Below are positions 7,827 through 62,668 of a DNA stretch of 64,000 nt, piece by piece. The stretch is from Antedon mediterranea (Eukaryota; Echinodermata; Crinoidea; Comatulida; Antedonidae): the NCBI RefSeq assembly GCF_964355755.1, contig NC_092675.1:4312312-4376311 (forward strand), read 5' to 3'. The position numbers and the translations under genes were made by a program. The notes below the pieces were generated by a model that saw only the letters and a program-made list of their open reading frames with translations, had not been told where the DNA came from and ran no database searches. Positions within the stretch are counted from its first letter, which is position 1. Every line of letters starts with the position of its first letter.

Positions 7827-7997
7827 TCATACAAATGTGACGGGTCCGTCGTCCCACTCTATCTCAGATTCGGACCCGCTTGAGTCCTCATCATCATCGT
7901 CATCTAAAATGTCATTATCACTTCCGCTTGGTGTTGAATTCCGTTCTTGTGGGATTTCGTGCATTGCCGTTTCAGCTTTTGAGAAATAACAGGTTAT
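7827..7997 (-). CDS. pten: PTEN-A exon 9 (C-terminal tail and stop)
   Basis: 56 codons plus TGA. Starts ITCYFSKAE after a ccccag acceptor, completing the last C2 strand. A tail rich in Ser, Asp and Glu follows (five Asp in a row, then [11 protein letters not shown]), which suits casein-kinase-2-type phosphorylation as in vertebrate PTEN. It ends in VTFV, keeping a Thr at -2 and Val at 0 for PDZ binding. The CDD-like acidic run is absent from PTEN-B. Confidence 0.9.
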   Translation of the reverse strand: MTCYFSKAETAMHEIPQERNSTPSGSDNDILDDDDDEDSSGSESEIEWDDGPVTFV

Positions 7998-59800: not shown

Positions 59801-62668
59801 TTTTTTGTCACATATAGTTTGATAGTGTAGAGCTTTACATCCACCTATTTCTATCAGTAAATACATTATTGTAGTTTCAATATAATATATAGAAATGTGT
59901 TGGTATATTCATTTGTCTCCTAATGCAAGTTTATAAAAAAAATTTTTTTTCAAATCATTAGAACACTATAATAATATTATTACATAGATTCACCATATTC
60001 AGGGATTCCATAACAAATCAGTAAAAACCTACTTTACCACTGTCGGAAAATAATTGGAATTTTCACAAATGTGGTTGTGGTGGTGTTGACCAACAAGCAA
60101 TACAAATAATATTGATTCGGTAAAAGTTTACATACTTTAGAAACATTAGAGTCTAAAAACTTCTCTTTTACAGCAATAAAAATATAGTCAGTCAGGTCAT
60201 GTTAAGGAAAAAGTAGGGACTTTATAAGCATCTGAAATCTGGTTTAAAGTATTGGTTTAATTCTCAACCCACTCTATAAAAAATTGCTTTAGGATGTGTG
60301 ACAAAAAAACAAACATACCTTTCCATTTACAGTTCTTGCAAAAGCATAATGATCCAAAGCTTTCTGAGCATCACTATACATTTGTCTATGAAGCATGTAG
60401 GCACATATCATCACTCCTGTACGTCCCTGTCAAAAACAAATCAACCAAATTATACTGGTCATACTGTGTACAGGTAAAAATCAAAATTTGTACAGGTACT
60501 GTACTCTCTTTTAACAAAAACTTTTCAAGATAGTCACTTGTATCATTTGTATTTATTTATATAGTTATCACATCGTATTATTTATTCTACTCAGTAACAA
60601 AACATATCTCGAAATTGTTAACAATTTTGACAATAAAGTTATCTTGTATCTTGTATCTGTTGTATGGTTTTTGCCCCCACGAGCATAGGGCTGTTTTAAT
60701 CAATTGAAATTGGTTTTTCTAAATGGTAATTAAAACAGTTTATAACAGGTTTTGTATCGTTTTTAAATTTTTATTCTTTTTGTATGCGTATATACGTAAG
60801 ATGTTAGTAAAAAAAGATACAAATACAAAAGAATCGCTATAAAGTGGACACCTTTAAGCCCTAACTTAACTGTCCACTTGATAGTGGTGTCTTCTAAAAG
60901 GGGGTGTCTCAAAGGGGACGTTTTACTGTATTCAATTAAAATGTTTAGTGCCAGATGGCAAAAAGAGCAGGAGAAAGGAGAATGTAAAGCTCTATCAAAC
61001 TTTATGTGACCAAAAAAAGTAAAGTGCCCAAACATGAACATGATAATGTCATATCACTACCATATTTGGGCATATCACTACCATATTTGGGCATATCACT
61101 ACCATGCGACGAGTGAGTGAGTGGCCGAGCGGTTAAGACAGTGGAACCGTAATTACCTAGCCACAACATCGGCAGGGGTTCGAGGCTCACTCACTCCATG
61201 GTTCTGGTGGTAGAACGAGTCTTCTCGGATAAGGACTATAAACCGTAGGTCCAGTGTACACATCTAGCTCGTGTGCACTTTAAAGAACCTAGTACATCTT
61301 TCGAGACGAGTAGGGGGTTACCCCGGTGTATTAGTACATCACAGCCACTGATCACCAACTGGGCCCTCTGGGAGACCAGTCATTGACTGAAGAGGTTACC
61401 CAGTATAAATATATATTTCAATCAATCAATCAATCAATGTTTGGGTATTTGAAAACCTACCTTTCCTGCTTTACAGTGTATAACTGCTGTATTTTTTTCA
61501 TCTTCACCTAGCCATCCATCCAGATCATCACAAAATGGTTTAAAAAGGTTAAAATTCGGTGGATTGTGATCATCAAACGGAAAATGTTCAACTCGATTGC
61601 CAAATTTTGAAATGTCATAATTGCGTTCGGAACATCTATAAAGAAAAAATAAACTTGTATAAATCAAGTTTTCTAATCTCTAGAGGATATGGAATTTTCT
61701 TGACACAATATTTTATAAAAAGAAAAGTTTAATTATTCATATTTTGGTACAATTGTTACCAAATAATTATCTAAACAAATGCCAAATACAAAATTGATAT
61801 AAACTTACAGATTATAAACTTTAAAATGGTCTTTATGACGTTCATTTAAAAACCTGAAGAAAAAAGTAAGGATAAGGTCAACTTGGCAACAGAAAATGAA
61901 ATAAACTAACTAAAATGGAGAATTTAAGCATGAATGAGGTGGTGTTAAATATGAACAGAAGTTGATCTCGAGTTCAACTAGTTTTGGTTTTTTTTTTACA
62001 GAGTGCCTACACTGTACAAGTCTTATATATTATATGCTTTTAAGCTCTGTCTACACTATCAAACTAGTTTGACAAAAAAAGTGTGATGTCCTCAAATGGT
62101 AGTGATATGCCCCAATATGGGCACATCACATTTTTTTGTCACACAAAGTTTGATAGTGTAGACAGAGCTTTAATTTAGATTAGTTTATAACGACTGTACG
62201 TACCTTACAACGCTTTCAATATTGTTTCTGTAGACACCTTCCAGTTTATCAGCAGGAAAGCCCATTGCTATAATATTGGGATAGATATCTGTGTCATTTT
62301 GTTAAGGCTAAAATATACAGAACCAAGCAGTATAAACAAAGCCGTGCAGCTTCAAATGCCAACTTAAGAAATGGTGAGAATAATAAATTGTGACTTTGGA
62401 CTTGGATGGATGTACATGATGTAGGTGTTGCTATGACATTTAAAAAGGATGGAGGTTATACCAAACATTCACACATAATCCCATGGAGGTATTTTGTACC
62501 TCCATACATAATCCTTTAACTGGACATTTCTGTAAATCCTGTCCTCACATATTTCCACCTTTTGTATTAACAATAAAAGAAAAGGATACAACTAAGATCT
62601 AGATCATAGCTTCCATCTGTAAACCTCCGTTTCTTCTTGCTAACCATCACCCGCAATTTCCACGCCAT
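53668..62668 (-). CDS. pten: PTEN-B, phosphatidylinositol-3,4,5-trisphosphate 3-phosphatase (nine exons)
   Basis: Complete second PTEN gene. Exons (minus strand): 62590-62668, 62204-62288, 61809-61853, 61461-61635, 60319-60426, 56840-57043, 56001-56111, 54853-55056, 53668-53820. Total 1164 nt, 387 residues. All introns lie at the positions of PTEN-A, including the one within the P-loop. Kept: basic patch [74 protein letters not shown], and PDZ-ligand end CTQV. Over the exon 4 block 40 of 59 residues equal PTEN-A, so the duplication is old compared with the transposon insertions. Catalytic residues predict an active PIP3 phosphatase. The segment before the TI loop ([10 protein letters not shown]) departs from the vertebrate YGEVRTRDKK, which could alter activity. 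It has no CpG-rich upstream region. Confidence 0.93.
54853..55056 (-). CDS. pten: PTEN-B exon 8 (C2 domain)
   Basis: 68 codons. [20 protein letters not shown] ... [20 protein letters not shown] then RLYSPNFK, closer to human than PTEN-A at the start of the exon. Donor gtaatc is weaker than the other donors. Confidence 0.92.
55336..55491. mobile_element. Hairpin MITE in PTEN-B intron 7
   Basis: Left end aaaggtctggctacactatc (two changes), right end gtttgatagtgtagacagag; centre with gatatgacatcatcgtgtcc. Confidence 0.85.
55632..55759. mobile_element. Hairpin MITE, degenerate, in PTEN-B intron 7
   Basis: ctaaactttatgtgacaaaa at left and aaaagtgtagacaactt at right: both terminal repeats shortened, centre (gatgtcatatcactaccata) typical. 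Orientation inverted against the 55.3-kb copy. Confidence 0.75.
56001..56111 (-). CDS. pten: PTEN-B exon 7 (C2 domain, CBR3 side)
   Basis: 37 codons between ctacag and gtgagt. [20 protein letters not shown] then [17 protein letters not shown]. One codon longer than in PTEN-A. The lysine-rich end is the membrane-binding loop. Confidence 0.92.
56840..57043 (-). CDS. pten: PTEN-B exon 6 (TI loop, start of C2)
   Basis: 68 codons. [20 protein letters not shown] ... [20 protein letters not shown] ... [11 protein letters not shown]. The TI loop is unchanged from human. One codon longer than PTEN-A. The donor is gtaagt. Confidence 0.93.
57147..57308 (+). mobile_element. LINE reverse-transcriptase C-terminal fragment
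   Basis: An open stretch of 53 codons ending [16 protein letters not shown] ... [18 protein letters not shown], then TTAND and TAA. The pattern R-R-D-I-K ... A-R-R-LW ... A-QQW is typical of the last residues of LINE-encoded RT proteins. The RT domain itself is absent. It lies in PTEN-B intron 5, antisense to the gene. Confidence 0.7.
57309..59676. other. PTEN-B intron 5, nothing recognised
   Basis: AT-rich intron sequence; TA-rich stretch around 58690-58800. No supported gene or element. Confidence 0.45.
59677..59834. mobile_element. Hairpin MITE in PTEN-B intron 5
   Basis: Left end aagctctgtctacactatca complete; right end has lost 'acag' (gatagtgtagagctt). Centre canonical. Confidence 0.85.
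60319..60426 (-). CDS. pten: PTEN-B exon 5 (second half of the P-loop)
   Basis: 36 codons. [20 protein letters not shown], then [16 protein letters not shown]. Supplies the catalytic Arg130. The last 10 residues lack the RTRDKK-like basic cluster seen in PTEN-A and human. Confidence 0.94.
60540..60660 (+). mobile_element. Probable retroelement 3' end with (CTTGTAT)n tail
   Basis: ttttgacaataaagttatct followed by tgtatcttgtatctg, a processed-looking end with a repeated heptamer tail. Lies in PTEN-B intron 4, just upstream of exon 5 in gene orientation. Family not identified. Confidence 0.4.
60986..61105. mobile_element. Hairpin MITE cut by a SINE insertion
   Basis: aaagctctatcaaactttat (short deletion in the repeat) through three copies of 'catatcactaccat', then stops where the SINE head begins. 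The expected right arm is missing. Confidence 0.8.
61107..61440 (+). mobile_element. tRNA-derived SINE, best full-length copy
   Basis: Head: gtgagtggccgagcggttaa (A box, class II tRNA type such as Leu or Ser) and ggggttcgaggctcac (B box). Body: ccatggttctggtggtagaa, ttaaagaacctagtacatct, ttcgagacgagtagggggtt. 3' part: gggagaccagtcattgactg aagaggttacc, then a (caat)n tail. Pol III internal promoter implied. The 3' end lies about 20 bp from the PTEN-B exon 4 donor. Confidence 0.9.
61461..61635 (-). CDS. pten: PTEN-B exon 4 (WPD loop and first half of the P-loop)
   Basis: 175 nt, same length and phases as in [43 protein letters not shown], ending VIHCKAGK before gtaggt. Catalytic Cys124, Lys125, Lys128 and Asp92-His93 equivalents are present. 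Confidence 0.94.
61809..61853 (-). CDS. pten: PTEN-B exon 3
   Basis: 45 nt. With split codons [16 protein letters not shown]. Acceptor cttcag, donor gtaagt. Confidence 0.93.
62042..62170. mobile_element. Hairpin MITE in PTEN-B intron 2
   Basis: Both terminal repeats perfect (aagctctgtctacactatca). A short internal version, without the second gtagtgatatg block. Only 34 bp from the exon 2 donor. Confidence 0.88.
62204..62288 (-). CDS. pten: PTEN-B exon 2
   Basis: 85 nt. [20 protein letters not shown] then NNIESVV, ending AG before gtacgt. Keeps the human [12 protein letters not shown] motif exactly. Confidence 0.93.
62482..62505. mobile_element. Micro-palindromic insertion, 24 bp, flanked by acataatcc
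   Basis: Arms atggaggta / tacctccat around ttttg, with an extra leading C. The 9-bp acataatcc stands before (62473-62481) and after (62506-62514). In PTEN-B intron 1. Arm matches the copy at 45.8 kb over eight bases (catggagg). Confidence 0.65.
62590..62668 (-). CDS. pten: PTEN-B exon 1 (N-terminus)
   Basis: 79 coding nt. [20 protein letters not shown] then YDLDLS, splitting Tyr27 before gtatcc (the same donor hexamer as PTEN-A). The SKKKRR basic patch is stronger than in PTEN-A. An upstream ATG (62680 region) is followed at once by TAG, so it is not the start. Confidence 0.9.

What the first reader, a model, noticed from the sequence alone, without database searches (positions are those of the whole stretch)
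7827..62668. Head-to-tail tandem duplication of full-length PTEN
Two complete nine-exon PTEN genes stand in tandem on the minus strand. Both have unbroken frames, every catalytic residue I can check and a PDZ-ligand C-terminus. PTEN is usually single-copy in animals outside of genome-duplicated lineages (general knowledge), and it is strongly dosage-sensitive. Two diverged copies (40 of 59 identical residues in the exon 4 block) that both keep catalytic residues imply long retention of both, thus likely division of roles.
Basis: partly seen in the sequence, partly recalled or inferred. Interest (0 to 1): 0.88.

Follow-up and report, generated by a model that had tools for sequence, protein, structure and literature searches.

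The report
Ancient tandem pair of PTEN genes
An animal genome, probably an echinoderm's, carries two complete but strongly diverged PTEN tumour-suppressor genes side by side; both look functional and the pair looks old, but whether they divide the work is not shown.

Summary
Two complete nine-exon PTEN genes lie head to tail on the minus strand of a gap-free stretch: B at 62668-53668 (387 aa) and A at 44993-7827 (395 aa). All 16 introns are GT-AG, at matching points and phases. The nine catalytic residues checked and a PDZ-ligand-like tail are kept in both. A search of the 354-Mb, 18-contig genome showed no third PTEN; the animal is probably an echinoderm. Allele, artefact and contaminant are very unlikely: synonymous sites are saturated, and of 78 DNA matches between the loci only 4 are matching exons, the rest repeats or out of place. 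By protein, A-B, A-human and B-human identity are 58.6, 58.8 and 59.4%. If A and B are sisters under a clock, the duplication falls early after the split from vertebrates (stem fraction 0.24, bootstrap 0-0.42), but the tree is unresolved. Both copies are under purifying selection at equal rates. Division of roles is inferred: membrane-facing parts and tails differ, but there is no expression evidence. Two PTENs are already known in zebrafish and planarians, so this is a new member of a known kind.

The parts
62590..62668 (-). PTEN copy B exon 1 (start codon at 62668)
62204..62288 (-). PTEN copy B exon 2
61809..61853 (-). PTEN copy B exon 3
61461..61635 (-). PTEN copy B exon 4 (DDHNPP loop; first part of the P-loop, HCKAGK)
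60319..60426 (-). PTEN copy B exon 5 (rest of the P-loop, GRTG; altered arginine loop ARTVNGK)
56840..57043 (-). PTEN copy B exon 6 (TI loop VTIPSQ, start of C2)
56001..56111 (-). PTEN copy B exon 7 (C2)
54853..55056 (-). PTEN copy B exon 8 (C2)
53668..53820 (-). PTEN copy B exon 9 (acidic Ser/Thr tail, C-terminus TQV)
44915..44993 (-). PTEN copy A exon 1 (an in-frame ATG also lies three codons upstream)
29299..29383 (-). PTEN copy A exon 2
28987..29031 (-). PTEN copy A exon 3
21056..21230 (-). PTEN copy A exon 4 (DDHNPP loop; HCKAGK)
20379..20486 (-). PTEN copy A exon 5 (GRTG; arginine loop VRTRDGK)
17970..18170 (-). PTEN copy A exon 6 (TI loop)
9848..9955 (-). PTEN copy A exon 7 (C2)
9253..9468 (-). 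PTEN copy A exon 8 (C2; two-residue insertion after the lysine loop, [10 protein letters not shown])
7827..7997 (-). PTEN copy A exon 9 (acidic Ser-rich tail, C-terminus TFV)
33426..38737 (-). DIRS-like retrotransposon inside intron 1 of copy A (an insertion, not part of the gene)
   Evidence: RT domain and a tyrosine-recombinase-like match just under its cut-off, 170-nt fully complementary inverted arms, many near-identical copies in the genome

Best explanation
Two PTEN lipid phosphatases with intact catalytic residues arose by an old local tandem duplication at the PTEN locus and have both been kept by purifying selection. Each is expected to dephosphorylate PIP3 at the membrane and so brake PI3K-AKT signalling. 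The most likely reason for keeping both is division of labour through regulation and membrane targeting rather than through catalysis. B keeps a human-like tail cluster (SDTDSE; human tail recalled), but its arginine loop is rewritten (human VRTRDKK, B ARTVNGK). A keeps that loop, but has an insertion beside the lysine-rich C2 loop and a re-made acidic tail. Shown: structure, intactness, saturation, equal rates. Inferred: enzyme activity, expression of both, division of roles.
For: Complete gene models with matching intron positions and phases. D92, H93, H123, C124, K125, K128, R130, T167 and Q171 of human PTEN are identical in both copies (the roles of these residues are recalled). Neutral evolution is rejected: log-likelihood -2630.6 against -2747.3 for omega = 1 (the fitted omega of 0.003 is not reliable because dS is saturated). 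Fourfold sites 31 of 77 identical against 26.7 by chance. Relative rates equal: 40 columns where only A matches human, 41 where only B does, of 340 (chi-square 0.01). Of 76 positions that are invariant in human PTEN and the readable VSP/TPTE sequences, A departs at 15 and B at 12, none of them among the nine catalytic residues named. Tails end TFV and TQV. No third PTEN in the genome search. Pieces of an ATAD1 gene lie 16-19 kb downstream of the stop of copy A; ATAD1 is the neighbour of PTEN in human (recalled).
Against: No RNA evidence for either copy. No relative's genome could be searched, so the age rests on a clock and a tree that does not resolve (AU p 0.60, 0.11, 0.52). The asymmetry between domains (A nearer human in the phosphatase, B nearer in C2) is not significant (Fisher p 0.17). 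Simple redundancy or dosage would leave the same sequence traces.
Confidence: 0.55

Rival explanations
1. Redundant or dosage copies: both are expressed alike and do the same job; the sequence differences are drift in tolerant positions.
For: Equal rates in both copies; catalytic residues the same.
Against: Redundant copies are rarely kept until synonymous sites saturate (general expectation); exon 5, in the otherwise conserved phosphatase domain, is only 18 of 36 identical; one loop and the tail are rewritten.
Confidence: 0.22
2. A younger, lineage-specific duplication with fast evolution of both copies, so that it only looks ancient.
For: The tree cannot place the node; the bootstrap stem fraction runs from 0 to 0.42 under a clock, and a clock is not guaranteed after duplication.
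Against: Synonymous sites are saturated independently of protein rate; of 78 DNA matches between the loci, 4 are matching exons and only 2 join introns of the same number, on opposite strands and in a repeat. One of the 4, at exon 3, spills over both exon borders, which is the one hint of shared intron sequence.
Confidence: 0.18
3. Duplication older than the echinoderm-chordate split, with one copy lost in the line to human.
For: A, B and human are equidistant; grouping B with human is not rejected (AU p 0.52); site patterns against VSP are level: 10 for A with B, 10 for A with human, 12 for B with human.
Against: The best tree, weakly, joins A and B (support 35.7/53); both copies hold a similar stretch near the end (SESEWD in B, SESEIEWD in A) that the human tail lacks (the human end is recalled); tandem placement is simplest as a local event.
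Confidence: 0.07
4. Artefact: allele, assembly duplication, pseudogene or contaminant.
For: None found; read depth could not be checked.
Against: No N in the window; 713 of 1155 nucleotides identical in aligned coding sequence; open frames and canonical splice sites; the same repeats in both loci; both on one large contig (31.7 Mb).
Confidence: 0.01

Closest known systems
Human PTEN
   Same: Phosphatase-C2 order, HCKAGKGR P-loop, DHNPP loop, TIPSQ loop, lysine-rich C2 loop, PDZ-ligand tail (human tail recalled); 6 of 8 intron positions agree with the human exon lengths that I recall
   Different: Single gene; here an intron splits the P-loop (after codon 128) and the C2 intron lies elsewhere (human positions recalled); 58.8% (A) and 59.4% (B) identity
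Zebrafish ptena and ptenb
   Same: Two pten genes in one animal, with 'relevant but distinct roles' in antiviral immunity (PMC7349019, title and start of abstract in the listing)
   Different: From the teleost genome duplication and unlinked (recalled), not a tandem pair
[quoted passage not shown]
   Same: Two PTENs in an invertebrate; their silencing causes neoblast hyperproliferation (PMC8377419, passages)
   Different: Genomic arrangement and orthology to this pair not known to me; another phylum
VSP/TPTE of the same genome (L009, C5:30.68 Mb)
   Same: Related phosphatase-C2 module; an intron in the P-loop one base from that of A and B (read by eye)
   Different: HCKGGKGR P-loop; best solved matches are voltage-sensing phosphatases

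Membership tests
PTEN | P-loop HCKAGKGR with K125 and K128 | tested here: met
   identical in A and B
PTEN | Acid loop aspartate (D92) and TI loop with Q171 | tested here: met
PTEN | PTEN-type C2 domain following the phosphatase | tested here: met
   PTEN_C2 over cut-off, 106.8 and 101.1 bits
PTEN | Basic N-terminal PIP2-binding stretch | tested here: met
   human [32 protein letters not shown]; A has lost one basic residue (R14)
PTEN | Acidic Ser/Thr tail ending in a PDZ ligand | tested here: met
   ends TFV and TQV; the motif definition is recalled, binding not tested
PTEN | PIP3 3-phosphatase activity | not testable with these tools
   needs purified protein
VSP/TPTE | HCKGGKGR P-loop | tested here: not met
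   both copies have HCKAGKGR; TPTE2/VSP scores are far below PTEN
VSP/TPTE | Voltage sensor or membrane helices before the phosphatase | tested here: inconclusive
   in-frame stop 5 codons (B) and 14 codons (A) before the start codon; further upstream exons were not searched for
Tensin/auxilin | Phosphatase-C2 inside a much longer protein | tested here: not met
   models of 395 and 387 aa; auxilin match much weaker (7.2e-31 and 3.6e-28)

The most novel reading that the evidence does not exclude
The pair is an echinoderm-stem (or older) PTEN-A/PTEN-B duplication kept for several hundred million years because lipid-phosphatase control is split between two proteins with different membrane interfaces and tails. 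Since all eight introns have matching phase in both copies, chimeric B-to-A transcripts would also stay in frame and could supply mixed isoforms.
Probability: 0.3. Interest if true: 0.62.

Novelty: new member of a known kind. Interest (0 to 1): 0.42.

Why it matters
PTEN is dosage-sensitive in mammals (recalled). An animal that has kept two full, diverged PTENs side by side for a long time gives a natural test of which parts of PTEN (arginine loop, C2 loop, tail) can be separated without losing the core function. In sea star larvae an orthologue of Pten is among the early activated regeneration genes (PMC6385403, passages), so a split of PTEN roles would bear on regeneration biology.

Tried and rejected
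Searched for relatives of copy B in prokaryote and viral collections: 31 and 11 pattern matches, none confirmed. No animal genome other than G000 was open to me, so a real dating tree could not be built.

Tried to name the species: assembly size in papers gave no paper; chromosome counts in genome notes gave no fit among the papers listed (1 of 1, 12 of 14 and 7 of 9 listed). The phylum rests on one bindin exon (E 2.3e-28, 66 of 238 model positions, one stop inside the matched frame; that bindin is confined to echinoderms is recalled) and on one tektin exon whose best match is chain 8snb_8J (239 bits against 147 for the next; that 8snb is sea urchin and the next mammalian is recalled). I tested exons from two of the four tektin loci cut; the other one matched tektin-3 of entries that I take for mammalian best, ahead of the three 8snb tektins, which does not help. 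The tunicate cellulase marker PF01341 gave no match, but the control genomes were silent too.

Dropped arguments: a shared one-residue gap in the C2 loop of A and B looked like a shared derived trait, but the VSP sequences have it too. The unusual intron positions were considered as proof of A-B kinship and dropped: VSP has a C2 intron at about the same point and a P-loop intron one base away. The fitted dS (104.8) is a boundary value and is reported only as saturated. K289 was dropped because its alignment changed.

Paper searches for a PTEN duplication in echinoderms showed none in their listings (30 of 810, 20 of 106, 4 of 4 and 11 of 11 papers listed); this is not proof of absence in print. 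Synteny: an ATP-sulfurylase (PAPSS-type) gene is on the same contig but 16.6 Mb away; the 14 His_Phos_2 (MINPP1-type) matches are all on other contigs.
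Full report
What is there. The window is gap-free and lies at C6:4312312-4376311 of a 354-Mb genome in 18 contigs. Comparing open frames of its two halves gave a matching series of exons on the minus strand; reading the borders and searching for the first and last exons gave two full gene models. B: 62668-53668, 9001 bases, 387 aa. A: 44993-7827, 37167 bases, 395 aa (spans). B is upstream of A in the same orientation, with 8.7 kb between. All 16 introns are GT-AG, and the two copies match in every intron position and phase.

Identity of the family. 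Human PTEN is the best solved-structure match of both copies by a wide margin, and both carry a PTEN C2 domain over its cut-off. In Pfam the phosphatase half matches only general phosphatase models, several of them under their cut-offs. The P-loop, acid-loop aspartate and TI loop are as in human in both. The genome's other PTEN-like hits are a VSP/TPTE gene on C5 and two loci on C6 (28.55 Mb) and C2 (2.50 Mb) that I judge tensin- or auxilin-like from their exons (by eye, not tested further). The genome search lists 15 matches for B: 13 inside this window and one each at the C5 locus and the distant C6 locus, so no third PTEN was seen (withheld stretches would be missed).

Age. Aligned proteins are 212 of 385 identical and aligned coding DNA 713 of 1155. 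At fourfold sites 31 of 77 agree, against 26.7 expected from base composition alone: synonymous change is saturated. Of 78 DNA matches between the two loci, 4 are matching exons (3, 4, 6, 8); 2 join intron 4 of both copies, but on opposite strands and within a repeat; the other 72 join places that do not correspond. The exon 3 match (86 bases, exon 45) spills over both borders, the one hint of shared intron sequence. Over about the first 350 residues A-B is 201 of 343, A-human 201 of 342 and B-human 203 of 342: the copies are as far from each other as each is from human. With VSP/TPTE as outgroup, joining A and B is the best tree but the alternatives stand (AU p 0.60, 0.11, 0.52). If A and B are sisters and rates are constant, the duplication falls a quarter of the way from the vertebrate split to the present (0.24; 150 bootstraps, 95% range 0-0.42). 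I read this as old, probably early in echinoderm history, but a fast younger pair is not excluded.

Selection. Neutral coding evolution is rejected (log-likelihood gain of 117 over omega = 1). Of 340 columns, 40 match human in A only and 41 in B only. Neither copy shows decay, and neither has raced ahead.

How the copies differ. B: arginine loop ARTVNGK for human VRTRDKK; tail [18 protein letters not shown], which resembles the human phosphorylated cluster (the human tail is recalled). A: loop VRTRDGK; R14 replaced by Q; two extra residues (RS) after the C2 lysine loop; tail [20 protein letters not shown]. By exon the least alike are exon 9 (16 of 50), exon 8 (31 of 68) and exon 5 (18 of 36); the most alike are exons 3 (11 of 15), 2 (19 of 28) and 4 (39 of 58). 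The differing loops and tail are places where human PTEN meets the membrane or is regulated (recalled), so I favour division of regulation and targeting over division of chemistry. This step is inferred.

Setting. Downstream of A, four pieces of a gene at C6:4301.2-4303.8 kb, 16-19 kb beyond the A stop, together match the outer mitochondrial transmembrane helix translocase best (E 1.6e-70; next name MSP1 at 1.1e-54); this is ATAD1 (name recalled), which adjoins PTEN in human (recalled). So the pair probably sits at the ancestral PTEN locus and arose there by local duplication. Intron 1 of A holds a DIRS-like retrotransposon whose family looks recently active. It lengthens A but breaks no exon.

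Organism. A bindin exon on C1 and a tektin exon closest to chain 8snb_8J point to an echinoderm; both taxonomic readings are recalled. The other of the two tektin exons tested was closest to tektin-3 of other entries instead. The class is undetermined.

Novelty. Two PTENs are known in zebrafish (PMC7349019, listing) and planarians (PMC8377419, passages). A diverged tandem pair in a probable echinoderm is a new member of that kind. My paper searches (listings only) showed no report of it, in an open-licence library.

Noticed in passing
33426-38737, minus strand, intron 1 of copy A: DIRS-like retrotransposon with a reverse transcriptase domain and a tyrosine-recombinase-like match just under its cut-off, 170-nt arms that are fully complementary, and 55-57% G+C where the rest of the window is mostly 28-40%. 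The 801-base piece searched is 100% identical to 3 other genomic places; 21 of the 40 matches scored (this one included; 77 candidates) are at 95% or more, 20 of them nearly full length.
   Followed up: partly
47320-47701, minus strand, between B and A: Three tandem tRNA-Asn (GTT) genes in a 153-base unit, with a fourth, weak tRNA match at 47167-47238.
   Followed up: partly
C6:4301.1-4303.8 kb (L015, L014), left of the window: ATAD1-type gene on the minus strand, with a large low-complexity Ser/Asp/Lys-rich plus-strand frame (886 aa, no Pfam match) between it and copy A.
   Followed up: partly
L013:3623-3928 + and 6805-7146 +, right of the window: NTF2-domain exon followed by a Glu/Pro-rich frame, possibly a G3BP-type gene (the G3BP reading is recalled).
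   Followed up: no
e.g. 55335-55493, 59675-59831, 27217-27772: Repeated short element with ends like TAAAGCTCTGTCTACACTATCAAAC, present in both PTEN loci; similar sequence lies in the VSP locus (by eye). It looks like a non-autonomous mobile element family.
   Followed up: no
15762-16774 (intron 6 of copy A); 51108-51738 (between B and A); 8590-9013 (intron 8 of copy A): Minisatellites with units of 26, 17 and 21 bases; the first gives long spurious open frames in several reading frames.
   Followed up: no
20486-21056 and 60426-61461: An intron splits the catalytic P-loop (HCKAGK | GRTG) in both PTENs; the VSP gene of the same genome has one a single base away.
   Followed up: partly
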